Positions 2,911 to 16,270 of a stretch of 32,776 nt of DNA are shown piece after piece (the first letter of the stretch is position 1; every line of letters starts with the position of its first letter). The translations under genes were made by a program, and so were the position numbers. The notes beneath the pieces are model-generated. The model was not told where the DNA came from. It did no database searches and worked only from the letters and a program-made list of their open reading frames with translations. Source of the DNA: Alphaproteobacteria bacterium (GTDB taxonomy: Bacteria > Pseudomonadota > Alphaproteobacteria > Geminicoccales > Geminicoccaceae); the NCBI GenBank assembly GCA_027045875.1, contig JALUAG010000105.1, positions 1 through 32,776 on the forward strand. Reading direction: 5' to 3'.

Positions 2911-5001
2911 TCACCCGCCGGCGGGCCGCCAGGGCAGCAGTTCCGTAAGCTCGCGGCGGAACGGCACCACATCCGGATCGACGCTCTCGCCCAGCTCCTC
3001 GGCGAAGCGTCTTCCCGCATAGACGGCATGGGCGATGGTGGCCGGCGCGAGCGCATCGCCGATGGCGGTCACCGCCTCGATGCCCCGATCGGCCCATTCC
3101 TCCCGCCGCACCTCGAGATCGCGCAGGAGCCCGTCCTCCGGCAGGCGGGCCGTGACCATGACGACCGCCGCCGCCTCGCGCACCGTGACGCGGCCGGTGT
3201 GGACGCAGCGGAGATCCACCTCCCCCGCGCGCACCGTCTCCACCGCCCGTCCCGTCACGAGCTCCACCCCGAGCTCCAGGAGCCGCGCCTGGATCGCGCG
3301 CTGCTCCAGGGTGTTGCGGGTCCAGGCGGAGACCTCGTTGGCGGGGGTCACGAGCGCCACCTCGAAGCCCTCGCGCCGCAGGAGCTCGGCCAGCACCCCG
3401 CCCATGTAGAAGTGATCGTCGTCGTAGAGCAGCACCGGCCCCGCCCCGGGCCGGGCACCGGCCATCAGATCGTCGGGGGTGAGAACGGAGGCCTCCGGGT
3501 CGACGGGGATCGGCAGGGTATGGAAACGCGCGACCCCGTCCCGCCGCCAGCGGGATCCGGTGGCGATCACCACCCGGGCGGCGCCGAATTCCAGCACATC
3601 ATCGGCGCCGAGCCGGCTCTCGCGGAAGATCTCGACATCGGTCATCTCCGCGAGCCTTCCCTCCCGCCAGTCGCGCACCCGGATCCAGGCGGCGAGACCG
3701 GGCAGGCGCGATTCGCGAAGGACCCTTCCGCCGAGCTCGCGCCCCGCCTCGGCGAGGGTCACGGCATGGCCGCGACGACCGAGCCAGAGGGCGCATTCGA
3801 GCCCCGCCGGGCCGGCGCCCACCACCAGCACCCGCTCGCGCTCCCGCGCCGGGCGGATGCGCTCGGGGTGCCAGCCCTTGCGCCATTCCTCGCCCATCGC
3901 GGCGTTCTGGGTGCAGCGGATGGGCGACATGGTGAAATCGCCCGAGACGCAGATGTTGCAGCCGATGCATTCGCGGATCTCCTCGATCCGCCCCTCCTCG
4001 ATCTTCCTCGGCAGGAAGGGATCGGCGATGGAGGGCCGGGCGGCGCCGATGAAATCGACGATGCCCTCGCGCACCAGCCGCACCATGGCATCGGGCGAGG
4101 TGTAGCGCCCGACCCCGACCACGGGTTTCGTGGTGAGCTGGCGCAGCCCCCGGATGTACTCTTCCTGCGCCCCTTCCGGGGTGAAGCGGGAGGTGCGCGA
4201 GTCCATGTCCCAGCCGGCGAGGCAGAAATCCCAGAGATCGGGAAGATCGGCCAGCATCTCGACGACGGCGAAGACCTCCTCGCGAGCGAGGCTGCCCTCG
4301 CCCGTGAACTGCCCGGCGCTGAGGCGGACGGCGATCGCCGCCGCATCCCCCGCCTCCTCCTTGCTGTCCAGGATCACCTCGCGCAGGAGCCGCGCCCGGT
4401 TCTCGAGCGAGCCGCCGTATTCGTCCGTGCGGTGGTTGTAGCGGCGGGAGAGGAAATGCTCGAGGATGCCCAGATCGTGGCCGGCGTAGACGTAGACGAG
4501 ATCGAAGCCGGCCTCGATGGCGCGGCGCACGGCCCTTCGGTGCCAGCGACGGAGATCGGCGATGTCCTGCTTGTCCATCGCCCGCGCCTGCACGGGATCG
4601 GCGGTGAAGGTGATGATGGGCAGATGGGAGGGGCCGCGGGGCACCTCGCGGGTGTAGTGGTTCGGGGCGTTCAGGCCGTTGTAGCAGAGCTCGATGCCGG
4701 CGAGCGCGCCGTGGGCGTGGACCGCCTCGGCGATGCGGGCAAGGGCCGGCAGGTCGCGGTCGTCCCAGAGCCTGAGCTCGATGAAGGGGGTGATGTCGGA
4801 TGTAGGGTGGAATTCCACCTCCTCGGTGCAGACCACCGCCCAGCCCCCTTCCGCCTTGACCGCCCGCATGGCGGCGAGTGCGGTGGGATCGCGGTAGCCC
4901 ATGCCGTTGCAGTGGGGCACCTGAAAGAAGCGGTTTCTGGCCACCACCGGGCCGATCCGCACCGGCTCGAACAGCACATTGAAACGTGGATCGCGCCCCA
5001 T
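2911..5001 (-). CDS. Trimethylamine dehydrogenase-like iron-sulfur flavoprotein (amine demethylase/dehydrogenase)
   Basis: This 696-residue protein has the full layout of the TMADH / dimethylamine / histamine dehydrogenase family: an N-terminal flavin TIM barrel, a 4Fe-4S site and a C-terminal nucleotide-binding half. Cys31 in 'VPHC' matches the cysteine that covalently binds FMN. 'CIGCNIC' (345-351) plus Cys363 match the cluster ligands. Tyr172 and His175 ('YVYAGH') and Trp264 match active-site residues; 'GAGPAG' (395-400) is the dinucleotide fold. Two aromatic residues of the TMADH amine pocket appear replaced by Glu60 and Asp355, so the substrate is probably not trimethylamine. N-methylproline demethylases are also in this family. 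The ATG at 5001 follows GGGGAGG; a GTG at 5022 is less likely. It is probably the last gene of the importer-hydrolase unit to its right, now separated by inserts. Confidence 0.85.
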   Translation of the reverse strand: MGRDPRFNVLFEPVRIGPVVARNRFFQVPHCNGMGYRDPTALAAMRAVKAEGGWAVVCTEEVEFHPTSDITPFIELRLWDDRDLPALARIAEAVHAHGALAGIELCYNGLNAPNHYTREVPRGPSHLPIITFTADPVQARAMDKQDIADLRRWHRRAVRRAIEAGFDLVYVYAGHDLGILEHFLSRRYNHRTDEYGGSLENRARLLREVILDSKEEAGDAAAIAVRLSAGQFTGEGSLAREEVFAVVEMLADLPDLWDFCLAGWDMDSRTSRFTPEGAQEEYIRGLRQLTTKPVVGVGRYTSPDAMVRLVREGIVDFIGAARPSIADPFLPRKIEEGRIEEIRECIGCNICVSGDFTMSPIRCTQNAAMGEEWRKGWHPERIRPARERERVLVVGAGPAGLECALWLGRRGHAVTLAEAGRELGGRVLRESRLPGLAAWIRVRDWREGRLAEMTDVEIFRESRLGADDVLEFGAARVVIATGSRWRRDGVARFHTLPIPVDPEASVLTPDDLMAGARPGAGPVLLYDDDHFYMGGVLAELLRREGFEVALVTPANEVSAWTRNTLEQRAIQARLLELGVELVTGRAVETVRAGEVDLRCVHTGRVTVREAAAVVMVTARLPEDGLLRDLEVRREEWADRGIEAVTAIGDALAPATIAHAVYAGRRFAEELGESVDPDVVPFRRELTELLPWRPAGG

Positions 5002-5087
5002 CGCACTCCCCCTCCCCGACACGGCGGTGGCCCCTCTCTACCGCCGCATCCGCGCCCTTGTCACGGCGCTCTACCGGCAGGGGGTTG
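4940..5087. repeat. Direct repeat, copy 1 (5' end and leader of the flavoprotein gene)
   Basis: This copy covers the first ~20 codons of the flavoprotein gene, its ribosome site and its leader. It recurs at 6219-6382. The first 76 nt differ at three positions. After a diverged centre (16 nt longer in copy 2) the two match again at 'CCGCATCCGCGCCCTTGTCACGGC'-type sequence, ending near a G run. Read on the - strand, the right end translates to a tail F-Q-P-P-A-G-R-A-P-stop, resembling the VapC tail F-E-P-P-A-R-G-V-P-stop at the other copy. Confidence 0.85.
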
Positions 5088-5301
5088 GAAAGGCGGCGCA
5101 TGCCCGTCGTCCTTGCGGTCCGGTTACGATGTCCGATCAAGATCCCGGCCGGGGATCTACCGAGCGGCACTGTTGATCCGAACGACTCTCCTCGCTAGCC
5201 TCGCCCCGTCCGGGCGGCCGGCGGGCCGGCTTCCCTTGGGCGCGTGACGGGTCGCCGCCCGCGAAAGGAGAACAGCGAGAACAGGCAGGGAGGATGCTTC
5301 G
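5002..5301. other. Intergenic region between flavoprotein gene and AT-rich insert
   Basis: About 300 nt without a convincing gene. The left part is repeat copy 1 including a VapC-like 3' remnant. The rest is GC-rich with nested GCCGGC palindromes (about 5216-5231). The transition to AT-rich sequence comes at the start of the membrane-protein gene, whose ribosome site (GGGAGGA, 5288-5294) lies at the right edge. Confidence 0.5.
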
Positions 5302-6036
5302 ATGGCAAACGACAGGCTCGATCTGGCGTTCAACGACAATGTCGAAGGCATCCGGCATTTGAAAAACCAAATGTATGTTATCTCAGCAGCCGTATACGCT
5401 GGATTGTGGACACTTCTTTGGTCAAATCAACTTATTTACGCTAACGGGAGAATTGTATCGGAAAAGCTAGCTCTTTTCACGATTTTGTCAGAAGGGTTAT
5501 TAATATTACACGCTTTGGCACTTCGATCGATGGCAACAGGGATCGTAAAGTTTCGTGTTCGGCTTGCGTGGCTCTATCGTTATTTCGATATAAATAAATG
5601 TATTCCCAACAACTATTGGCGTGGAATTGACATGTTAAGACAAACCGACCGACATTGGAATAACCAGAGAACGACATCATTAACTTCGCAAGAAATTTCA
5701 TCTCTTGTCAAGAAAGGTGACTCTTTGATGTTTCCTAGAGTTTTTTATACGTCTTCATTGATAATTTTTATTTCCTTCTTTCTCTATTTATATCTCTCAA
5801 CGCAGTCTATAGATTTCACAGACATCAAAAACTCTATACAAGATGATACAACTGGCTGGCTTTATAGATTCGTTATTTTGTTACTCTGGTACTCGCTTAT
5901 GATGTTAACAGTTGCCCTAATTTCGATATCCGCAGAATGTGTATATTCCTGTATCATTTTTCAAGAATTCGGCCTGAAACACCACCTTATAGAAACAGCA
6001 CGCGAAGAGGCGAGGTCAATAGGATTATGCTCATAA
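5302..6036 (+). CDS. AT-rich, four-helix membrane protein of unknown function
   Basis: The 244-residue product has four likely membrane helices at about 24-46, 55-75, 147-167 and 188-214. A loop of ~70 residues, rich in Arg, Asn, Asp and Lys, lies between the second and third. There is no signal peptide and no family I recognise. The gene is strikingly AT-rich, with many A/T-ending codons, unlike everything around it, and stands alone on the + strand. GGAGG lies 8 nt before the ATG. Imperfect direct repeats of the flavoprotein gene's 5' end bracket it. This points to acquisition by transfer. Small helix-hairpin membrane proteins in such cargo are sometimes defence effectors, but nothing in the sequence proves that. 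Confidence 0.8.
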   Translation: MANDRLDLAFNDNVEGIRHLKNQMYVISAAVYAGLWTLLWSNQLIYANGRIVSEKLALFTILSEGLLILHALALRSMATGIVKFRVRLAWLYRYFDINKCIPNNYWRGIDMLRQTDRHWNNQRTTSLTSQEISSLVKKGDSLMFPRVFYTSSLIIFISFFLYLYLSTQSIDFTDIKNSIQDDTTGWLYRFVILLLWYSLMMLTVALISISAECVYSCIIFQEFGLKHHLIETAREEARSIGLCS

Positions 6037-6355
6037 CACGTATGATTTGTGCCAATCATTGCTTGATCTAGCGTATCAGATTGCCTTACGGTCGTTTCGT
6101 CTATGTCCGTCGTGCAGGATCCGAGCGTAGCGGAGGAGATCTAGATGCGCCAGCAGCTCGATCATCAGCGGGATTCCGCGGAGGCATCCCTGCCGGTAGA
6201 GCCGGGCATCTCGAACTCGCCACCACCGGGCCGATCCGCACCGGCTCGAACAGCACATCGAAACGTGGATCGCGGCGCATCGCACTCCCCCTCGCGGGCG
6301 GCGGGACGGATCCCCGCCGCCGCGGCCCATCTCTAGCGCCGCATCCGCGCCCTTG
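6037..6355. other. Intergenic region with flavoprotein-gene remnant
   Basis: The first ~180 nt fall from AT-rich back to GC-rich and hold no recognisable gene or clear terminator. The remainder is repeat copy 2, including a 5' fragment of a flavoprotein gene. VapC ends at the right edge, inside the repeat. Confidence 0.5.
6219..6280 (-). pseudogene. 5' remnant of a second flavoprotein gene (repeat copy 2)
   Basis: Reading from an ATG at 6280, the fragment gives M-R-R-D-P-R-F-D-V-L-F-E-P-V-R-I-G-P-V-V, against M-G-R-D-P-R-F-N-V-L-F-E-P-V-R-I-G-P-V-V in the intact gene. The purine-rich ribosome site is also kept. Similarity stops at 6219. The wider repeat runs on rightwards to about 6382, through the leader and into the last codons of vapC. 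It is the displaced or duplicated end left by insertion of the AT-rich membrane-protein gene. Confidence 0.85.
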
Positions 6356-6769
6356 TCACGGCACACCGCGCGCCGGGGGTTCGAACACGGGGGCAGCGTC
6401 CGTGATCTTCCGGGCTCGACGAACGAGGGTGCGATCGAAGGTGGCGAAGCTCCCGCCCTCGGGCGTAGCGGCGAGATGGAGCGCATCGGCGAAATCGAGG
6501 CCGGTCGCGGCCGCCTCGAGAGCAAAGAGCACGCGCCTCTCCTGTTCGACGGTGACGTCGGGGAGGCCCAGGAGACTACGGAAGGCGTCGGCGATCTGGC
6601 CGGCCGGCACCCGGTAGACCGCCTCCAGCACCCACCAGCATTCGATAAGTACCGTGATCGGCACGAAAATCCGCGAGGTCGCGAACAGGAACCGGGCGCG
6701 TTCGGTCTGATCGGGATCGTCCGCCACCAGCAGGCGGACGAGGAGGTTGGTGTCCACCGCGACCGTCAC
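6356..6769 (-). CDS. VapC-type PIN-domain ribonuclease toxin
   Basis: A 137-residue PIN-domain protein with the acidic metal-binding set visible: Asp6 ('VDTN'), Glu43 ('LIEC'), Asp95 ('FADALHL') and Asp112 ('ATFD'). PIN toxins of this class cut tRNA or rRNA until bound by their antitoxin. The GTG start overlaps the antitoxin stop (GTGA), typical of translational coupling. The last codons and stop lie within repeat copy 2. Length is normal for VapC. The family is firm; the RNA target is unknown. Confidence 0.88.
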   Translation of the reverse strand: MTVAVDTNLLVRLLVADDPDQTERARFLFATSRIFVPITVLIECWWVLEAVYRVPAGQIADAFRSLLGLPDVTVEQERRVLFALEAAATGLDFADALHLAATPEGGSFATFDRTLVRRARKITDAAPVFEPPARGVP

Positions 6770-7029
6770 GGCTTCCGCCAGGCGCGTCGGAACCGCTCAC
6801 GCAGCGCCCGATCCATCCGTTCCGGGCGCACCGGCTCCCCGCCGAAACGCCGCAGACAGCCCACCACATCTTCGAGCCGCACGTCGTGCGGGCGCCGCCG
6901 CACCGGCCGCAACAGGAGGACGTCGTCCTCTTCGACGAGCTCGAATTCGGTGCCCGGTCCGAAACCGTGCCGGCGTCGCACGACGCTCGGGATCACGAGC
7001 TGGCCCCTGCTCGAGAGGCGCACGCGCAT
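6766..7029 (-). CDS. AbrB/SpoVT-type antitoxin (VapB)
   Basis: An 87-residue antitoxin. The N-terminal 'MRVRLSSRGQLVIPSVVRRR' is the classic AbrB swapped-hairpin DNA-binding fold. The Arg-rich C-terminal half would bind the PIN toxin encoded by the overlapping downstream gene. The ATG at 7029 is chosen because GGAGG sits 6 nt upstream and the AbrB motif begins there; an in-frame extension to 7071 adds unrelated residues. Two direct repeats just upstream (7042-7059) are likely autorepression sites. Confidence 0.88.
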   Translation of the reverse strand: MRVRLSSRGQLVIPSVVRRRHGFGPGTEFELVEEDDVLLLRPVRRRPHDVRLEDVVGCLRRFGGEPVRPERMDRALRERFRRAWRKP

Positions 7030-7041
7030 CTCAACCTCCGT

Positions 7042-7059
7042 GTAAGACAACGTAAGACA
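7042..7059. promoter_or_regulatory. Tandem operator-like repeats upstream of vapB
   Basis: GTAAGACA occurs twice (7042-7049 and 7052-7059), with starts exactly 10 bp apart, one helical turn. They lie 13-30 nt before the vapB start. VapBC complexes usually repress their own promoter, so these are reasonable operator half-sites. Confidence 0.5.
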
Positions 7060-7104
7060 GGGTGCGCCCATATCTTTCGCGCGTCAACCGCAGCGACGTA
7101 CACC

Positions 7105-7878
7105 TCACCCCCGCTCCCACAGCATCGCCGCGATCCGCGGGTCACCGGCGAAAGACTCGCGTCCATAGGCGACGGCGTCGGCCGGACGCTCGCGCATCGC
7201 CCGCACGCCGGAAGCCGCGAAGAACACCTTCCAGATCCGGAAACTGCGCGCGCGGGGTTTGCGCGCGGCAAAGGTCTCGCAGCGCAACACGGCGAGATTG
7301 ATGCCGCCTTCGGGATCGCGTGCCGATTCGTAGCGCAGCAGTCCCGCCTCGACCTCGCGGGCGGCCTCCGCGAGCGCGTGACAGGCCGCATAGTCGGCGG
7401 GATGCGTCCATAGCGCACGATCGCGATCGAACGGCGGTTCCATGAGGTGGAGTGCCCGTGCCGTCGCGAAATCACAGGCGAAGGCGGTGAACTCGAGCGC
7501 CCGGTCGGGCCAGGGCACGTCGGGCGCTTCGGCAAAGAACAGCAGGCGCCAGAAGACGATCTCGGCGAGCGCCGTCGCCTCGCGCTCGGCCGCGTAGAAC
7601 ACGCCGCGTGGATCGCCCGCCCGACGGAAGCGGGAGGCGTGCGGACTCGGGCGGTAGCGGAAGGGCGTGGAGAGCAGCCAATGCAGATGCCGGCACGGTT
7701 CCGGTACCGGCGGCTCGGTCTCCTCGATCAGCCGCTCGAGGAGCTCCTGCTCTTCGAGGGTGTCGACCAGGGGTAAGGTCGCGACGCGATGCTGGGCCTC
7801 CACGAGCCGCCAGCCCACGCCTCGCCAGGGACGCAGTTCAGAGGACAGCGCGTCGGCTGTCCAGATAGGCGAGGACAT
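7105..7878 (-). CDS. RES-domain toxin
   Basis: A 257-residue RES-family protein. The RES core is visible at about 65-215, with 'SRFRRAGDPRGVFYAAERE' leading into 'TALAE' (Tyr95, Glu105) and a downstream 'NLAVLRCETFA'. RES toxins such as MbcT and ParT degrade NAD+ or ADP-ribosylate targets; which reaction applies here cannot be told. The start overlaps the upstream Xre-type antitoxin gene by 41 nt, the usual gene order for these pairs. Residues 1-60 are an N-terminal extension. Confidence 0.85.
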   Translation of the reverse strand: MSSPIWTADALSSELRPWRGVGWRLVEAQHRVATLPLVDTLEEQELLERLIEETEPPVPEPCRHLHWLLSTPFRYRPSPHASRFRRAGDPRGVFYAAEREATALAEIVFWRLLFFAEAPDVPWPDRALEFTAFACDFATARALHLMEPPFDRDRALWTHPADYAACHALAEAAREVEAGLLRYESARDPEGGINLAVLRCETFAARKPRARSFRIWKVFFAASGVRAMRERPADAVAYGRESFAGDPRIAAMLWERG

Positions 7879-8221
7879 CGACGAGACCGGCGACGGTGAA
7901 GAGCCGTTCGAGCGGGATTCCGTCCAGGGCGGTATTGGGCGCGCGCAGCCAGCCGCGCATCACGGCGAGATCGCCACCGGCGACGGCATCGAGCGAGCGG
8001 TAGAGCCGGATCAGCAGCACCGCCAGCTCGAAGGCCTTCTCCCGCCGCCGCAGGCGGAAGGTTCCGCGCCGGAGGCGCGAGGCGCTGGCTTCGGAGAGGC
8101 CGAGGATCCGGGCGAGCTCGCGGTTACCGAGACCCAGCCGTTCCGCCGCCCGTGTCACCGCCTTGGCGACGACCCGCTCCTCCTCGACGGTCCGGTGATC
8201 GGTTGCTGGTGCCAAGCCCAT
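7838..8221 (-). CDS. Xre/MbcA/ParS-type antitoxin
   Basis: A 127-residue antitoxin. A helix-turn-helix covers about 20-60 ('NRELARILGLSEASASRLRRG'). The C-terminal region, with 'AFELAVLLIRLYRSLDAVAGG' and 'WLRAPNTALDGIPLERLF', is the MbcA/ParS/Xre toxin-binding domain. It pairs with the overlapping RES toxin. AAAGGA lies 7 nt before the ATG. A promoter with a palindrome in its spacer sits upstream, consistent with autoregulation. Confidence 0.88.
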   Translation of the reverse strand: MGLAPATDHRTVEEERVVAKAVTRAAERLGLGNRELARILGLSEASASRLRRGTFRLRRREKAFELAVLLIRLYRSLDAVAGGDLAVMRGWLRAPNTALDGIPLERLFTVAGLVDVLAYLDSRRAVL

Positions 8222-8247
8222 GCAGGCATCCTTTCCAGTGCAAACAA

Positions 8248-8276
8248 ATCATGGGAAAATTGCTGCAGCAGGTCAA
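8248..8276 (-). promoter_or_regulatory. Promoter of the Xre/RES pair with embedded palindrome
   Basis: On the - strand TTGACC (-35, 8276-8271) and CATGAT (-10, 8253-8248) are 17 nt apart, about 27 nt before the antitoxin start. The spacer contains the 10-bp palindrome TGCTGCAGCA (8261-8270), a plausible binding site for the Xre-type antitoxin. Confidence 0.5.
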
Positions 8277-8346
8277 CCGGCCGGTTCGCAAAGTGGCCGT
8301 GTCGCCGTTTGCGCGCGAATCCCACAGCAGAAAGGGCGATCCCGAC

Positions 8347-8634
8347 TCAGTCGGTGGCGAGCCCGCGTTCCAGGAGCTCCCGCATGAAGCGCTGATAGGG
8401 CATGTGGCGGCGGGCCGCCTCCGCCTTGATGGCGGCGAGCAGCCCTTCCGGCAGACGCATCGTCACCCGGGCGGTCTTGCGCGCGAATTCGAACCGCACC
8501 GGGCGGAAGGACGAAAGATCGTAGCGGGTGAGATCCGCTTCCTCGACGAAGCGCGCCGCCTCCTCCTCGCTCTCGAACCGCGGCAGTGGCCGCAGCGCCT
8601 CGCGGGACCAGTTTCTGGTGTTATCGCCGCTCAT
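8347..8634 (-). CDS. BrnA-type antitoxin
   Basis: A 95-residue protein with a C-terminal ribbon-helix-helix ('VTMRLPEGLLAAIKAEAARR', then 'PYQRFMRELLERGL'). The N-terminal part carries 'RFESEEEAARFVEEADLTRYD', which resembles BrnA-type antitoxins. It starts inside the toxin gene (14-nt overlap), so the order is toxin first, as in brnTA operons. The in-frame extension up to 8739 is a shadow of the toxin gene. Confidence 0.85.
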   Translation of the reverse strand: MSGDNTRNWSREALRPLPRFESEEEAARFVEEADLTRYDLSSFRPVRFEFARKTARVTMRLPEGLLAAIKAEAARRHMPYQRFMRELLERGLATD

Positions 8635-8920
8635 AATGCCGCACCTCCTTCTCGTGCATGTAGCGGGCGCTGATCGGGCGGATCCGGGTCCCTTCTTCGC
8701 GGATCCGCAGGGTGAAGGCCACGAACACCCAGCGCCCACGTACGGTCGTGCCGATGGCGAGAAAGCGGGTTTCCACCGAACTGTGCCGGATATCCGGATG
8801 CACGTCCGGTCCGCGGTGGAACACCTCTTCGATCTCTTCCCGCGTCAGCCCGTGCCTGCCACATTTGGGCCAGTTGCCCTCGTCCCAGTCGAAACCGACT
8901 ACCGATATTCGTATGTACAT
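8621..8920 (-). CDS. BrnT-type ribonuclease toxin
   Basis: A 99-residue toxin of the BrnT (DUF497) family, which folds like RelE-type ribonucleases. The typical opening 'FDWDEGN....CGRHGLTREEIEEVF' (10-34) is present, with the family's 'KHG' as 'RHG' (His23). The 'VETRFLAIGTTVRGRWVFVAFTLR' strand region and the Arg-rich tail also fit. It overlaps the BrnA gene. The start is close to a remnant of the nitrilase gene (8959-9035) and no good ribosome site is seen, so the insertion nearby may have replaced its promoter. Confidence 0.85.
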   Translation of the reverse strand: MYIRISVVGFDWDEGNWPKCGRHGLTREEIEEVFHRGPDVHPDIRHSSVETRFLAIGTTVRGRWVFVAFTLRIREEGTRIRPISARYMHEKEVRHYERR

Positions 8921-8958
8921 TTGTCATGCCACGAGATCAAGCCCGGACCCCTGCGTCT

Positions 8959-9035
8959 CTCACCCCCTCAAATCCCGCATCTGCGTACACCGCATTTCTT
9001 CCGGGATCTGGCGGATGGCGTCGAGGTCGGTGATC
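8959..9035 (-). pseudogene. 3' remnant of the nitrilase-family gene (direct repeat copy A)
   Basis: These 77 nt match 10572-10648 with six differences. On the - strand the fragment still reads I-T-D-L-D-A-I-R-Q-I-P-E-E-M-R-C-T-Q-M-R-D-L-R-G-stop. Three changed codons are synonymous and two alter residues (Ser to Cys, Leu to Met). It is thus a slightly different allele of the gene end rather than random decay. Similarity ends sharply at 9035. Confidence 0.9.
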
Positions 9036-9128
9036 GCTGCTGGGAGGCTTACCGCCCGAACTCATCGCAGCAACTGCGATAGCCAGCATTGAACGGCGCT
9101 TCTCCTTTAGTGCGTGTGTCCCACTTGC

Positions 9129-10367
9129 TTACAGCCTAATATGGAACGGCTCAGCCGGCAGCTCTCGTAGCGGGTGCACCCAGACAGCACCAAAAAATGT
9201 GTCATCGGGAAACACGCTTCCCCCGATCCAGCCACCGCGAAATTCGTACTCCATGGCGCCCATTTCTCGTGGGCGCAACTCGCTGAGGAGGTCTGGCGAT
9301 CGTTTTTGAATAGCCGTTCGTACGACGTCGAACGTGTCTTTGAACATCCCGATAACCGGAATGACGCACCACCAGCGCCGGCGTCGCATAACGAATCCTA
9401 CCGCCCTGAAGCCCCTCTCGAAGTCTGGATGAATGTATCGAAAAATAAGGTCCCTCCCTTTTAAATTTACCAAGTACAATGAATGATCTTCCTCTTCCGC
9501 ATGCCTTCCGAGCAGGCGCTCAGCAGGACCAAAAAGCTGCATCGCGCGAAGCCATGAGGCGTAGTTCGCTCCCCGTACAGCGTACGCGGGAGGTTCCACT
9601 GCCTCGTCTCCCTTCTCCCCTCCGTGAGGTGGTTTCCCAGATCCACCTGACGATGGCAGGCCGTGAGGCGGATAGTCCACCTCAAGAAGCACCGTCCCTT
9701 CGTGAGTTTTATCCTTTATCTCGCGGATCCAGCTACCGATCGCGCACCCTTCGCACTTCCGCCCCTTTATCCTCTGAATTCCACAACGAACTTGCTGAAG
9801 CGCCTCGCGGAGTGGTCGTTTAAAATTCGGTTTTCCTCCCGGCTTGACGAACGCTCCTTTTGCTTCTGCTATCACCCAAGTATTATTACCGGTATCGAAT
9901 ACGAAATCCGGCGATCTACTCGGGCCGGTCCTAGGGGAAGTACCCCCAGAAACGTCGCATTGCACCACCTTGTCGAACCGACCGACGTATCCGCCACCGT
10001 AGCGCTCCGTAAGACGCAAGATCGCCAATCCCTGCCCCGTTCGCCCACTATAGCTCGTCTGCGTAAAATCAGCGTACGCATGTGATTTTCCTTGCCTCAA
10101 GCGCAGCTCACAACTACAAGGAAAAAACATCGTAGTGTATATCATTGTCATTGCTAATTCTTCCATTCTACGTAAGAATGAATATTTCTTGCGCGGAGTC
10201 CAATCTGCATAGTCTGCCTTGATAACTGAATGGGCTAGATTTGAAATCGAAAATTTCGTTAAGTGAGAGGCTTCTGGCAACGGCCTTATTTTGGTATTGC
10301 GGTTAATGACATCATGAGCATCTATGCTATGAGTATTAACGTGCTTGCGCCGGCATGGATATAACAT
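9129..10367 (-). CDS. PD-(D/E)XK nuclease-like protein of unknown role
   Basis: The 412-residue product carries a good PD-(D/E)XK nuclease core: 'PDFVFD' (Asp154) followed 14 residues later by 'EAK' (Glu168, Lys170). This motif is used by restriction enzymes and many defence nucleases. The rest is unrecognised. A basic, Trp/Arg-rich stretch ('VMRRRRWWCVIPV') and a C-terminal 'GGWIGGSVFPDDTFFGAVW' are notable. The ATG at 10367 follows GGAG at 7 nt spacing; a TTG at 10418 could extend it by 17 residues. Base composition is more AT-rich than the neighbours. The gene stands alone, without methylase or integrase, between two direct repeats of the nitrilase gene's 3' end. Function in defence is inferred only. 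Confidence 0.72.
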   Translation of the reverse strand: MLYPCRRKHVNTHSIDAHDVINRNTKIRPLPEASHLTKFSISNLAHSVIKADYADWTPRKKYSFLRRMEELAMTMIYTTMFFPCSCELRLRQGKSHAYADFTQTSYSGRTGQGLAILRLTERYGGGYVGRFDKVVQCDVSGGTSPRTGPSRSPDFVFDTGNNTWVIAEAKGAFVKPGGKPNFKRPLREALQQVRCGIQRIKGRKCEGCAIGSWIREIKDKTHEGTVLLEVDYPPHGLPSSGGSGKPPHGGEKGDEAVEPPAYAVRGANYASWLRAMQLFGPAERLLGRHAEEEDHSLYLVNLKGRDLIFRYIHPDFERGFRAVGFVMRRRRWWCVIPVIGMFKDTFDVVRTAIQKRSPDLLSELRPREMGAMEYEFRGGWIGGSVFPDDTFFGAVWVHPLRELPAEPFHIRL

Positions 10368-10418
10368 CACCCTTCTCCATCTATATGGGGAACAGAGATG
10401 TCGGTTGTCTTCTCTCAA

Positions 10419-10571
10419 AGAAACTTACAAAGGTCTAGCGCAGGGAGCTAGTCCACCGCGGATGGTCGCTGAGAATTGGCGACGGCACGAACCCGTTGAT
10501 CGCCTCGTCCCTTGACGGCAACTCATCCACCGCATCCCCGCTGCGATCCTCGCTCGATGCCCTCCGCGCCG
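10419..10571. other. Spacer between the nuclease-like gene and the nitrilase gene
   Basis: The composition changes here from AT-rich (towards 10420) to GC-rich (from about 10500), marking the right edge of the inserted segment. No gene or clear promoter was recognised. Confidence 0.4.
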
Positions 10572-10648
10572 CTCACCCCCGCAAATCCCGCAACTGCGTG
10601 CTCCGCATCTCCTCCGGGATCTGGCGGATGGCGTCGAGGTCGGTGATC
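10572..10648. repeat. Direct repeat, copy B (3' end of the intact nitrilase gene)
   Basis: This is the functional partner of 8959-9035. It covers the last 24 codons and stop of the nitrilase-family gene. With copy A it brackets the PD-(D/E)XK gene. Confidence 0.9.
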
Positions 10649-11340
10649 AGCAGCGCCTCGCCGCGCAGGCCCGCCGCGGCCGCCGGCTCGCCGTCGGGAC
10701 CGGCGATCACCGAGAGCCCGGTATAGGCGAGATCGCCTTCCTCGCCGCAATAGTTGCAGTAGGCGACCGTCACATCGTTCTCGGCCGCCCGCGCCGGCAC
10801 CAGGATGCGGGAGACGTGGCGGTAGGGCTCCATGTTGGCGGTGGGCACCAGCACCACATCCACCGCACGCCGCGCGAGCGCCCGCACATGCTCCGGAAAC
10901 TCCACGTCATAGCAGACCAGGAGGCCGAAGCGGTGGCCGGCATGGTCGAAATGGACATGCTCCTCCCCCGGGGCGAAGAGGGCGTTCTCGGTGGGTCCGA
11001 AGAGCTGGAGCTTGCGGAACCGGGCGAGGGTGCCTCCGTCGGGGCCGATCGCGAGCACCGCATTGTACAGTCTCTCCCCCTCCCGCTCCGCGAAGCCGGT
11101 GACGATCGCCATCCCGGTCTCGCGGGCGATGGCGCGGACCCGGGCGAGAGACGGCCCGTCCGCGGGCTCGGCCAGATCCCGCAGCCGCTCCTTCTGGTTG
11201 TAGCCGGGGAGGAAGAGCTCCGGGAACAGCACCATGCCGGCGCCGAAGGCGGCGGCGGCGCGGGCGGCGCGGGCGATCACCCCCAGCGCCAGCTCGACAT
11301 CGCCCGCCGGCGAGGGGGTCTGACAGAGGGCCAGCTTCAC
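10573..11340 (-). CDS. Nitrilase-superfamily carbon-nitrogen hydrolase
   Basis: The 255-residue protein has the nitrilase catalytic triad: Glu41 ('FPELFLPGY'), Lys110 ('RFRKLQLFGP') and Cys143 ('LLVCYDVEFPE'). Family members hydrolyse amides, nitriles or carbamoyl groups; the short form without extra domains and its place after a polyamine-type importer suggest an amidase acting on the imported compound or a breakdown product. The GTG at 11340 is chosen because GGGAG lies 8 nt upstream; a GTG at 11349 would overlap that site. It follows the binding-protein gene after a 10-bp hairpin. Before the inserts arrived, the flavoprotein gene probably came next. Confidence 0.88.
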   Translation of the reverse strand: MKLALCQTPSPAGDVELALGVIARAARAAAAFGAGMVLFPELFLPGYNQKERLRDLAEPADGPSLARVRAIARETGMAIVTGFAEREGERLYNAVLAIGPDGGTLARFRKLQLFGPTENALFAPGEEHVHFDHAGHRFGLLVCYDVEFPEHVRALARRAVDVVLVPTANMEPYRHVSRILVPARAAENDVTVAYCNYCGEEGDLAYTGLSVIAGPDGEPAAAAGLRGEALLITDLDAIRQIPEEMRSTQLRDLRG

Positions 11341-11360
11341 GGGGGGCACTCCCGCTGCGC

Positions 11361-13301: not shown

Positions 13302-14096
13302 TCATTGCGCTCGTCCGGCGCCCGATCCGGTACCGTTTCTCGAACGCGGTTGCGGACAGACACTGCGCAGGCCGTCCACGTGCTCGCGCAGTTCGGAACG
13401 GATCGTGGCCCACATCGGATCGAGAACGACATCGATCCCCTCGCGGCGAGCCATTTTTGCAGCGGGAACGAAATCCGAATCGCCGGCCACGAGGACGATC
13501 TGGTTTACTTGGCGCTTGAACGCGAGCGATGCGATGTCGAGTCCGAGGCGCATGTCCACGCCCTTCTGGCGCAGTTTGGGTTCGAAGTCGTCGTCGGTGA
13601 TGCTGTGGAGTGTCCGTTCGCGTCGGCTCAGCGCACGGACAACGGATGGTCGCAATCGCCAAGTGACCAGCGAATCGGGGAGTTCGCCGAGACGAAGTGC
13701 CACCTTCCTTTTCTGGCGAAGCGCCTCGTGGAACGCGTCGCGCCAGCGGGCGACTGCGCTGCGCCCTAGGTCGACCGGTTTCCGGGCGAGCGGGGTGTGC
13801 CCCTTCCAGCGCGCCGGCGGCGCGTCGTAGACGAAGATCCGGTACAACCGCGCCGTACGTCGACCATCGCCGTCCCGCAAATGATCCAGCGCTAGACCGT
13901 GAAGCCGGTCTGCAGCCGCATCAGACGTCAGCTGACCCCAGATGCGGCGCGCACGCTTGAGAAAGAATGCCGCATCGACAAGGACGGCCGTGGTTGTCAG
14001 GGAAAGGTGGCGCAGAAAGAGCTCGCCCCAGGGATCAGCATCTCCCGGATATTCGAGGGAGTGCGTACTGCCTGGGGCGGATGGCGAGTTCAACAT
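13302..14096 (-). CDS. NYN-domain (PIN-like) putative ribonuclease
   Basis: A 264-residue NYN-family protein. The acidic active-site pattern is spread as usual: Asp41 ('VLVDAAFF'), Asp181 in '[15 protein letters not shown]' (also Asp187), and Asp206/Asp208 in '[20 protein letters not shown]'. NYN proteins are metal-dependent RNases or structured phosphohydrolase-like domains; some act in defence or RNA decay. The ATG at 14096 has GAGGAGG about 9 nt upstream. It is the last gene of the accessory block, 138 nt after the PIN gene and 34 nt before the PotC-like gene. Confidence 0.85.
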
Positions 14097-14128
14097 AGGA
14101 CTCTACCTCCTCTTTGTCAACAAGCCCT

Positions 14129-14176
14129 TGACGTCAGGCGATTTCCTGCAGGTGTCGTCGCCGACGACTGTCTGCA
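14129..14176 (-). promoter_or_regulatory. Palindrome and hairpin between PIN and NYN genes
   Basis: TGACGTCA (14129-14136) is a perfect 8-bp palindrome. Next to it GTCGTCG (14154-14160) and CGACGAC (14162-14168) form a tight inverted repeat, extended by outer TGCAG/CTGCA arms (14147-14151 and 14172-14176). No T run follows, so a simple terminator is unlikely. The pair may control how much NYN protein is made relative to PIN. Confidence 0.35.
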
Positions 14177-14234
14177 CGCCCACATCACGAGACGGGAATC
14201 GAAGACGCCCCCTCCCTCGCCGGACCGGTGACGA

Positions 14235-14699
14235 TCACGAAAGCACGGTATCGCGAACCTCATCCGCCTCCTTCTGACTCATCGCCCCCTGCGCAACCGC
14301 CCGGTCGACGACGGTCATGGTATCGACGAGCCGGTCGTTACCGATGTATTTTTCGACCAATCGCACGAAAGCGCGACCACGGTCATCGGAAGCGAGCACC
14401 CCGCCGCGATGCGTGCAGATCGCGAGACAGGCAGCTTCGCCCTTGCCCATGCGGGATCTCAGCCCAGCATACAGTTCCACCTCCGCAACATCGGAAATCG
14501 CCTCTTTCCGCAGCCACCCATACGCAACTGCTTCTTCGAGAGCAGACGCTTGGTCGGGATAGGTAATCTCGTCAACAACATGATCCGGCACCACAAATTC
14601 GTAACCCATAATAGACCCTAATACGGACATTCGACCTGATTTCGCAATGTTAATGATGACAGAAGCATCTACAACGATGACAACATAACTGTCTTTCAT
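14235..14699 (-). CDS. PIN-domain protein, putative ribonuclease toxin
   Basis: The 154-residue PIN-fold protein has Asp11 ('VVDASVI'), Glu44 ('VVDEITYP'), Glu88 ('GKGEAACLA') and Asp105/Asp106 ('LASDDRG'), the expected metal-site positions. 'GKGEA' near the middle is typical of the PIN subfamily found next to XRE/ImmA-type proteins. It starts 23 nt after the XRE/ImmA gene, which is the likely antitoxin or activator. It is more AT-rich than the backbone. Confidence 0.85.
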   Translation of the reverse strand: MKDSYVVIVVDASVIINIAKSGRMSVLGSIMGYEFVVPDHVVDEITYPDQASALEEAVAYGWLRKEAISDVAEVELYAGLRSRMGKGEAACLAICTHRGGVLASDDRGRAFVRLVEKYIGNDRLVDTMTVVDRAVAQGAMSQKEADEVRDTVLS

Positions 14700-14722
14700 G
14701 AAATTTTATCGTACAGATAGAT

Positions 14723-15988
14723 TTATTTTCTAAATATACGGTCATTTTTACTTAAATACAGCACAACAGCATCCATATTTTCTTTCGAGACACCAACAAG
14801 TTCTACCAGATCTCGAAGTTTCCCATACGTAATTTCTTCTCGTCGAAAAGCTTCGAAAGCCAATGCGAGAAAGCGGCTGCGGAATTCCGTTCGCGCCTTT
14901 TCCGGTTCGGGCTCCTCGAAGCCGAGAAGCGTCTGGATATCCCGTCCAATGCCCGAAACCTCCTGGGCGCGGAGCTGCTCGAATTCCGTTACCCTCACCA
15001 GTCGCAGGGACTTGAGCCGAAACAAAGCGGCGAGCCGGCTCACGCCAAAATGGTGAGCCAGAAGCACCACATCGTGCATTCGGACTGAGCGGCTACCGGG
15101 ACGCGGTCGGACCTCCACGCGCTGCAAGCCCTCTTCGTCATACAGTTCGACCTCCATCCGACCACCCCGCGCCTTTCCCAGTCGATGCAAGAACATCCGG
15201 ACGCCTTCCTCGGGCATCAGAAAGGCGGCGGCGAAGGCGTTGGCTCGGACTTCGACGAGTTCGTCACGTGCCGCGGCACGGCTGACCGTACCACCGAGGT
15301 GGCGATCGACGAGCGCGTGACAGTATTCGTGGGCGTAAGAGAACCGTCGGCGCCAACGACTATGTTGTGGCTCGCGATTGTTCACGGCGATGAAGATGCC
15401 GATGCCTCGGTCCACGAGCGTCAGCCCTGAAATATCATCCGGGAGTGCGAGCTGAGCCGTTCGGATTCCGAGGTTTTCGAGCAGCGTCGCGAGACTCGGA
15501 ATGGGTGCACTGCCGAGTTCTAGGCGTCGACGTTCTTTGATCGCCATTTCTTCGCCTTGACGCACCGCCTCGCCCTTCGTGCGCGGCCGCCCGTACGCGT
15601 AGGACGGAAGCCCTTCGAAATCGCGCTCGAGACCGAGCAGCTCTTCGAGATTTGTGAGCTCCTGCGCGACAACCGTTGTTTTTCGCAAGGCTTCCGCGGC
15701 CGAATCCTCGCTCAGGAGATCGGAATGCCTGCGAAAAAGCGCAGTCAGGGCATCCCGCTCCGAGAAATCGGGCGCGAGAAAGTCCCGAATCTCGCGCCCA
15801 TAAAGGTGGGCCAAGCGGTCAAGTTCGAGACTAGATACCTTGCGCTGCCCGCCCTCCATCTGTGCAACTGCGGGACGCGAGATTCCGAGACGGCGCGCCA
15901 CTTCCTCCTGCTTTAGTCCGCATGCCTCGCGCGCAAGGCGTAGGCGCCGCGCGAGCTCCTCCATCGTGATCGTCACGGTGCCCCCCAC
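14723..15988 (-). CDS. XRE helix-turn-helix protein fused to ImmA/IrrE-type metallopeptidase domain
   Basis: A 421-residue regulator-protease. Residues 10-70 form an XRE DNA-binding domain ('LKQEEVARRLGISRPAVAQME'). The ImmA/IrrE zinc-protease motif is His220-Glu-Tyr-Cys-His224, with the third-ligand region 'RANAFAAAFLMPEE'. Related proteins sense damage or infection and cleave repressors, or act as antitoxins to a downstream toxin. The PIN gene follows at 23 nt. A GTG at 15988 is taken as start, 12 nt after the SNase-like gene; a GTG at 15976 with GGGGGG upstream and an ATG at 15964 are alternatives. The gene is clearly in the same operon as its neighbours. Confidence 0.88.
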   Translation of the reverse strand: MGGTVTITMEELARRLRLAREACGLKQEEVARRLGISRPAVAQMEGGQRKVSSLELDRLAHLYGREIRDFLAPDFSERDALTALFRRHSDLLSEDSAAEALRKTTVVAQELTNLEELLGLERDFEGLPSYAYGRPRTKGEAVRQGEEMAIKERRRLELGSAPIPSLATLLENLGIRTAQLALPDDISGLTLVDRGIGIFIAVNNREPQHSRWRRRFSYAHEYCHALVDRHLGGTVSRAAARDELVEVRANAFAAAFLMPEEGVRMFLHRLGKARGGRMEVELYDEEGLQRVEVRPRPGSRSVRMHDVVLLAHHFGVSRLAALFRLKSLRLVRVTEFEQLRAQEVSGIGRDIQTLLGFEEPEPEKARTEFRSRFLALAFEAFRREEITYGKLRDLVELVGVSKENMDAVVLYLSKNDRIFRK

Positions 15989-16000
15989 GGGCCGAAGCCC

Positions 16001-16270
16001 TCATTTTTTATATTGTTTCATCATCTTGTTGACCGATTCGCGTCCCACCCGGACATCGGCGACCGAGCGACCGTGTTTGTCGCGAGCCTTGGTATCAATC
16101 ACGACTTCCTGACCCAGGATCGCGCGTTCGAGTGCTCGCTTTGCCTCGCCGTATCCCGGTTCACGCTTTTCGGGCGTATCCACACCCGCCAGACGCACGG
16201 GATGCTTGCGACTGGCGGTCTCGAAAGTATCGCCGTCGATCACTCGTGTAACGCGTTCCTTACGGGGCAT
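16001..16270 (-). CDS. Short SNase-like (thermonuclease family) protein
   Basis: The 89-residue protein has the staphylococcal-nuclease active site: Asp12/Asp14 ('VIDGDTF'), Arg26 and Asp31 ('VRLAGVDTPE'), Glu34, and Arg68 ('DKHGR'). It has no signal peptide, so it would act in the cytoplasm. The usual C-terminal helices after 'ESVNKMM' are missing; it ends in a Lys-rich tail, so it may be truncated or a minimal form. GGAG lies 8 nt before the ATG. It is the first gene of the accessory operon, just behind a strong promoter. Confidence 0.82.
   Translation of the reverse strand: MPRKERVTRVIDGDTFETASRKHPVRLAGVDTPEKREPGYGEAKRALERAILGQEVVIDTKARDKHGRSVADVRVGRESVNKMMKQYKK

What the first reader, a model, noticed from the sequence alone, without database searches (positions are those of the whole stretch)
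8959..10648. Nuclease-like gene bracketed by two alleles of the nitrilase 3' end
The displaced copy (8959-9035) still reads in frame to the stop. Of its five changed codons three are synonymous, so it evolved as part of a working gene. The simplest reading is that the insert brought a replacement gene end from another strain and displaced the resident one, as integrative elements do at gene ends. No integrase is encoded. The same architecture occurs at 4940-6382, so two separate events of one kind are likely.
Basis: partly seen in the sequence, partly recalled or inferred. Interest (0 to 1): 0.75.

Follow-up and report, generated by a model that had tools for sequence, protein, structure and literature searches.

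The report
Inserted genes flanked by duplicated junctions
Two foreign-looking single genes each sit between two copies of a neighbouring gene's end, most likely because the insertion copied about 90-170 bases of its target and so left the genes on both sides whole, a little-studied way for defence-type genes to enter a bacterial genome without an integrase.

Summary
In detail: 8948-9035 repeats the nitrilase 3' end (10561-10648) at 89% and brackets a 429-codon gene of lower GC. The same layout recurs at 4937-5090/6216-6385 around a membrane-type gene. Both congeners held carry the oxidoreductase site without the membrane-type gene; there the sequence matching the displaced copy runs on toward the toxin genes. 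A third case, in congener G002, is the clearest: a NYN gene splits an ABC-transporter operon, and both flanking 92-nt copies hold the same stop/start overlap (ATGA) of two permease genes, so the target junction itself was duplicated and both genes survive. This fits 'insertion with long target duplication', described for restriction-modification genes, here with other cargo. Ku was not found in 4 of 4 genomes and no recombinase among 20 window proteins scanned. The ORF1 insert has a perfect 15-nt inverted repeat near its ends. Against my reading: at the oxidoreductase end the gene-attached copy is the more changed one, and the ORF2 site has no empty counterpart in any genome held. The mechanism is inferred, with moderate confidence. 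New variant of a known kind.

The parts
4937..5090 (-). Repeat A: 5' end of the oxidoreductase gene and its upstream sequence, gene-attached copy
   Evidence: 79.4% to 6216-6385 over 170 columns, E 3.2e-38
5068..5082 (+). Left arm of a perfect 15-nt inverted repeat near the ends of the ORF1 insert
   Evidence: 0 of 500 shuffles in narrow windows, 6 of 500 in wide ones; the two arms are the only exact copies found in the own genome
5302..6036 (+). ORF1, 244 codons, low GC; membrane protein by hydrophobic stretches (read by eye)
   Evidence: no family above cut-off; no relative in 384 other genomes of the class sampled
6188..6202 (-). Right arm of the 15-nt inverted repeat
6216..6385 (-). Repeat A': displaced oxidoreductase 5' end, running into the vapC 3' end (stop at 6356)
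   Evidence: 6216-6361 matches the single copy upstream of the oxidoreductase in G002 (88%) and G001 (86%) over 147 columns
6356..7071 (-). VapC-type PIN gene (6356-6769) and MazE/AbrB-type gene (6766-7071)
   Evidence: PF01850, PF04014
7105..8221 (-). RES toxin (7105-7878) and Xre/MbcA/ParS antitoxin (7838-8221)
   Evidence: PF08808, PF09722; RES also beside the oxidoreductase in G001 and G002
8347..8920 (-). CopG-type antitoxin (8347-8739) and BrnT toxin (8621-8920)
   Evidence: PF12441, PF04365
8948..9035 (-). Repeat B': displaced nitrilase 3' end
   Evidence: 89% to 10561-10648; 80% to the G002 nitrilase end over 71 nt
9129..10418 (-). ORF2, 429 codons, possible PD-(D/E)xK nuclease
   Evidence: shared P-D-F...E-x-K motif with the G311 homologue, which overlaps an HmaA-like frame by four bases
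10532..10567 (.). Imperfect inverted match to nitrilase coding sequence (9011-9048 and 10624-10655)
   Evidence: (wide windows 0 of 500 shuffles, narrow windows 18 of 500)
10561..10648 (-). Repeat B: nitrilase 3' end, gene-attached copy
   Evidence: 86% to G002 over 71 nt
10573..11349 (-). Nitrilase-family (carbon-nitrogen hydrolase) gene
   Evidence: PF00795
13302..14096 (-). NYN-domain gene; its orthologue in G002 is the third bracketed insert (L047:3154-3978)
   Evidence: PF01936

Best explanation
[quoted passage not shown] A short piece of foreign DNA with one accessory gene entered a gene junction, and roughly 90-170 bp of that junction was copied, one copy on each side. The gene on one side keeps its end in one copy, the gene on the other side in the other copy, so both stay whole; the stretch of each copy that no longer serves a gene is the 'displaced' end. 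Shown: the repeats; the site without ORF1 in both congeners; a gene junction present in both copies in the NYN case. Inferred: that the copies arose in the insertion itself, and that the route was strand switching during replication or repair (no Ku found, no recombinase found, inverted copies at two of three inserts), possibly with incoming DNA as template.
For: Site without ORF1 in 2 of 2 congeners held, with A'-like sequence leading on to vapC/RES sequence. NYN case in G002: 92-nt repeat, 87%, both copies carrying the permease stop/start overlap ATGA. A' reaches into the vapC 3' end, so that repeat too covers a junction. Shared states: A/A' 12 against 7 and 2, B/B' coding 12 against 1 and 5. 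The displaced nitrilase end carries most of the changes on its side, as expected of a freed copy. Ku absent in 4 of 4 genomes, control positive only in Bacillus subtilis of 14. No recombinase among 20 proteins. Inverted repeat at the ORF1 insert ends, two exact copies in the genome.
Against: At the oxidoreductase end the attached copy is the more changed one (7 against 2; coding 2 against 1) and lacks 16 nt that A' and both congeners have. In the coding part of A only 2 shared states were found. No empty site for ORF2: in G002 the match ends at about the nitrilase stop codon and G001 has no close nitrilase. The window itself lacks the NYN repeat although NYN is at the same place. The NYN insert has no inverted ends (494 of 500 shuffles as good). 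None of the inserts carries a restriction-modification pair. All genomes concerned are drafts.
Confidence: 0.52

Rival explanations
1. Allele import, the reader's view made precise: a donor strain already had the accessory gene beside the gene end. Its DNA recombined homologously inside the gene and joined illegitimately on the far side (homology-facilitated illegitimate recombination), so the donor end is now attached and the resident end displaced.
For: A is more changed than A' and lacks 16 nt found in A' and both congeners. Displacement by such recombination has been proposed for effector genes in Vibrio (PMC5361080, passages).
Against: The nitrilase end shows the opposite bias (5 changes in the displaced copy, 1 in the attached). 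In the NYN case each copy holds the ends of both neighbouring genes, which import of one gene end does not predict by itself. Copies are nearer to each other than to the congeners on most counts.
Confidence: 0.27
2. Single-crossover integration of a small circle, or of an integrative element that has lost its integrase, through a stretch homologous to the gene end.
For: Gives the same layout of direct repeats; the ORF1 insert has inverted repeats near its ends.
Against: No recombinase among 20 window proteins; the insert flanks have no other good copy in the genome; the three repeats are unrelated to each other and differ in length.
Confidence: 0.09
3. Assembly artefact: two strains in one sample joined into one contig.
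For: Draft genome of 110 contigs, 2.29% contamination; the copies differ by 10-20%.
Against: An independent assembly, G002, shows the same kind of bracket at a third place; the ORF1 insert has ends that match each other inversely.
Confidence: 0.08
4. Homing: the inserted nuclease gene cuts alleles that lack it and is copied in with flanking sequence.
For: ORF2 has a nuclease-like motif and the NYN gene a nuclease-type domain.
Against: ORF1 shows no nuclease family; the ORF2 homologue lies by a defence-type gene; ORF2 was found in 1 of 384 other genomes of the class sample and 0 of 397 others in the phylum sample.
Confidence: 0.04

Closest known systems
Insertion with long target duplication (Nobusato et al. 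2000, Helicobacter pylori; not held, known here from passages of PMC1643837, PMC3031569 and PMC3874152)
   Same: A gene inserted without a recognised mobile element, flanked by direct copies of the target in the order of 100 bp; a related genome has the site once
   Different: Cargo here is not a restriction-modification system; in the NYN case the copies span a stop/start junction; the copies have diverged by 10-20%; two of three inserts show inverted matches at the ends
Homology-facilitated illegitimate recombination with displacement of resident gene ends (proposed for Vibrio T6SS effectors, PMC5361080, passages)
   Same: A newcomer beside a conserved gene part, the resident part shifted downstream
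   Different: There resident immunity genes are kept; here only 76-86 coding bases are kept, and both neighbours stay whole
Small variable segments flanked by direct repeats (PMC2884548, section 10 read)
   Same: Short accessory segments between conserved genes, 10-18% of them flanked by direct repeats
   Different: 66-94% of those repeats are under 30 bp; here they are 88-170
Minimal mobile elements of Neisseria (recalled; only a listing seen)
   Same: Accessory genes exchanged between conserved neighbours without a recombinase
   Different: Exchange through whole flanking genes would not by itself leave duplicated ends (inference)

Membership tests
Insertion with long target duplication | Direct duplication of the target, in the order of 100 bp, on both sides of the insert | tested here: met
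   88, 154/170 and 92 nt
Insertion with long target duplication | Related genome with the site once and no insert | tested here: inconclusive
   Met for ORF1 in G001 and G002; no such site found for ORF2; for NYN the gene is present in both genomes
Insertion with long target duplication | Restriction-modification gene as cargo, as in the described cases | tested here: not met
   ORF1 and ORF2 have no family match above cut-off and no methyltransferase was seen among the 20 proteins scanned; hence filed as a variant
Integrase-driven element at a gene end | Recombinase gene in the insert | tested here: not met
   Each insert holds one main frame, neither matches a recombinase
Transposon with terminal inverted repeats | Inverted ends and short target duplication, with a transposase in trans or in cis | tested here: inconclusive
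   15-nt inverted repeat at ORF1 only; no further exact copy in the genome; duplication far longer than usual
End joining by Ku | Ku gene in the genome | tested here: not met
   PF02735 in 0 of 4 genomes
PD-(D/E)xK nucleases (ORF2) | Fold and catalytic residues | tested here: inconclusive
   Motif kept in two sequences; structure model unusable, mean pLDDT 32.8
Homology-facilitated illegitimate recombination | Attached end of donor origin, displaced end of resident origin | not testable with these tools
   No other genome of the species is held; two congeners only

The most novel reading that the evidence does not exclude
A process needing neither Ku nor an integrase in this genus puts single defence-type genes into tight gene junctions by copying the junction, so that neighbouring genes and operons stay whole; it has struck one neighbourhood at least three times, and the inverted matches at insert ends are its footprint of strand switching.
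Probability: 0.22. Interest if true: 0.65.

Novelty: new variant of a known kind. Interest (0 to 1): 0.45.

Why it matters
How lone defence and toxin genes move without a mobile element is poorly explained. Long target duplication was described for restriction-modification genes. The same signature with other cargo in an alphaproteobacterium, once with a coupled stop/start junction copied on both sides, would suggest a more general process that is tolerated because it keeps both neighbours whole. It also gives a simple search rule: direct repeats of 70-200 nt that span a gene junction.

Tried and rejected
Shared mobile ends: the flanks of both inserts, searched in the own genome, gave for ORF1 only the repeats themselves and for ORF2 six weak matches that all lie in the nitrilase coding part of the query; rejected. 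Families for ORF1 and ORF2: none above cut-off; sub-threshold hits for ORF1 (Fig1, E 0.005; one PHROG, E 0.24) were ignored. ORF2 in plasmids, phages and viral contigs: no match. ORF1 in plasmids and viral contigs: no match. ORF2 in the order of G311: 1 of 9 genomes, G311 itself. Solved structures: one hit at E 0.075, ignored. Structure of ORF2 from one sequence: unusable; no fold search was made. RNA families and tRNAs: none. A genome-contig scan gave the G002 contig again (JALSIM010000004.1) and two distant records. DNA of 4900-10700 in plasmids matched RES/Xre and BrnT/BrnA genes among the rows shown.

Survey for more cases: 84 pieces, 1,689,776 bases (G000 649,776, G002 620,000, G014 420,000), 26 direct repeats of 50-400 nt, against 4 inverted ones under the same limits. 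Three are the bracketed inserts. Of the other 23, those in L056, L060, L079, L102, L142 and the two chemoreceptor pairs fall in coding frames of one gene or of paralogues; L075, L100, L114, L124 and L131 were not fully resolved. The pieces came from contigs already seen, not at random, and the window and L047 were taken because of the finding, so crowding in one neighbourhood is suggestive only.

Clustering of the six nitrilase-end differences: a first limit was too strict (0.011); the right figure is 0.018, and I do not lean on it. Counts over all 170 columns of A/A' (16 shared, 8, 4) were replaced by those over columns with a counterpart in the congeners (12, 7, 2). Paper searches with no paper found.

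Full report
What is there. The window is contig 105 of a 3.53 Mb draft in 110 contigs. Along the plus strand: an oxidoreductase gene on the minus strand (frame 2911-5022; PF00724), repeat A (4937-5090), ORF1 (5302-6036, plus), repeat A' (6216-6385), a toxin-antitoxin cluster (6356-8920), repeat B' (8948-9035), ORF2 (9129-10418, minus), repeat B (10561-10648) and a nitrilase-family gene (10573-11349, minus). B/B' is 90.4% over 83 nt, E 2.8e-26; A/A' is 79.4% over 170 columns, E 3.2e-38. ORF1 has 38.9% GC and ORF2 51.9% in a window of 68.5%.

The site without ORF1. Two genomes of the same genus are held. In both, G001 (L022) and G002 (L023), the oxidoreductase start is followed by sequence matching A' (6216-6361; 86% and 88% over 147 columns), then short matches to vapC sequence (6665-6739 and 6693-6740), then RES sequence, with no ORF1. 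So A' stands where the single copy stands with respect to the toxin genes, and A where it stands with respect to the oxidoreductase. For ORF2 there is no such proof: in G002 the match ends at about the nitrilase stop codon, some 415 bases from the contig end, and G001 has no close nitrilase (best E 7.4e-19).

A third case. In G002 the orthologous ABC-transporter operon is split by a NYN gene (L047:3154-3978) flanked by a 92-nt direct repeat, 87% (3059-3150 / 4077-4168). Both copies contain the end of one permease gene and the start of the next, joined by the same ATGA stop/start overlap. That is what duplication of a target junction leaves, and it keeps both permeases whole. The window has NYN at the same place but no such repeat there; three further frames, among them an HTH/IrrE-type and an SNase-type gene, lie beside it. 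So the repeat was lost or altered in this lineage, or the two genomes have different histories at that place.

Which copy changed. Over columns with a counterpart in both congeners, A and A' share 12 states absent from both, A alone has 7 and A' alone 2 (16 gapped columns, 10 where the congeners differ, 1 all different); in the coding part alone the figures are 2, 2 and 1. In the coding part of the nitrilase end, B and B' share 12 states against G002, B alone has 1 and B' alone 5 (1 gapped). So the copies lean to each other, weakly in the oxidoreductase coding part. The nitrilase end fits decay of a displaced copy; the oxidoreductase end does not, since the attached copy is the more changed one and lacks 16 nt that A' and both congeners have. 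With one outgroup, 'shared' may also mean change in G002.

Traces of mechanism. Near the ends of the ORF1 insert lies a perfect 15-nt inverted repeat (5068-5082 / 6188-6202): 0 of 500 shuffles did as well in narrow windows and 6 of 500 in wide ones, and these are the only two exact copies in the genome, with one more at one mismatch. Beside ORF2, 10532-10567 is an imperfect inverted match to nitrilase coding sequence (0 of 500 shuffles in wide windows, 18 of 500 in narrow ones). The NYN insert shows none (494 of 500). Ku was not found in 4 of 4 genomes, and no recombinase among 20 window proteins. These facts fit strand switching better than Ku end joining or an integrase, but that step is inference.

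Cargo. ORF2 has one homologue, 33% identical, in 1 of 384 other genomes of a class sample and none in 397 others of a phylum sample, which overlaps the first. In G311 it overlaps by four bases a frame that matches the end of PADLOC's HmaA model (E 3e-143), so a role in phage defence is plausible. A PDF...WVxAExK motif is shared by the two; that it marks a PD-(D/E)xK nuclease is my inference from recalled motif knowledge. ORF1 has no relative in 384 other genomes of the class sample.

How common. In 84 pieces, 1.69 Mb, from G000, G002 and G014, 26 direct repeats met the limits, against 4 inverted; three are these inserts, and repeats in five other pieces stayed unresolved. Since the window and L047 were chosen for the finding, their closeness is suggestive only.

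Verdict. Best read as insertion with long target duplication (Nobusato et al. 2000, not held; seen through passages of PMC1643837, PMC3031569 and PMC3874152), with cargo other than restriction-modification genes. Import of a foreign gene end stays possible until strains of the same species are compared.

Noticed in passing
window 13302-16270: The ABC-transporter operon is interrupted between its two permease genes by a NYN gene, a 154-codon frame, an HTH/IrrE-type gene and an SNase-type gene; G002 has only the NYN gene there.
   Followed up: partly
window 6356-8920: Three toxin-antitoxin pairs of different families stand head to tail; at DNA level only short stretches of vapC are matched in G001 and G002.
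   Followed up: partly
L023 (G002:C6) end and L002 (G002:C4) start: The RES gene of G002 breaks off at a GGACACCCCCGGAAAC end that recurs inverted near the start of contig C4, probably an insertion sequence that ended both contigs (read, not searched).
   Followed up: no
L033 (G311:C67): The ORF2 homologue directly follows an HmaA-like helicase frame with a NOV_C domain, perhaps an extra member of that defence locus.
   Followed up: partly
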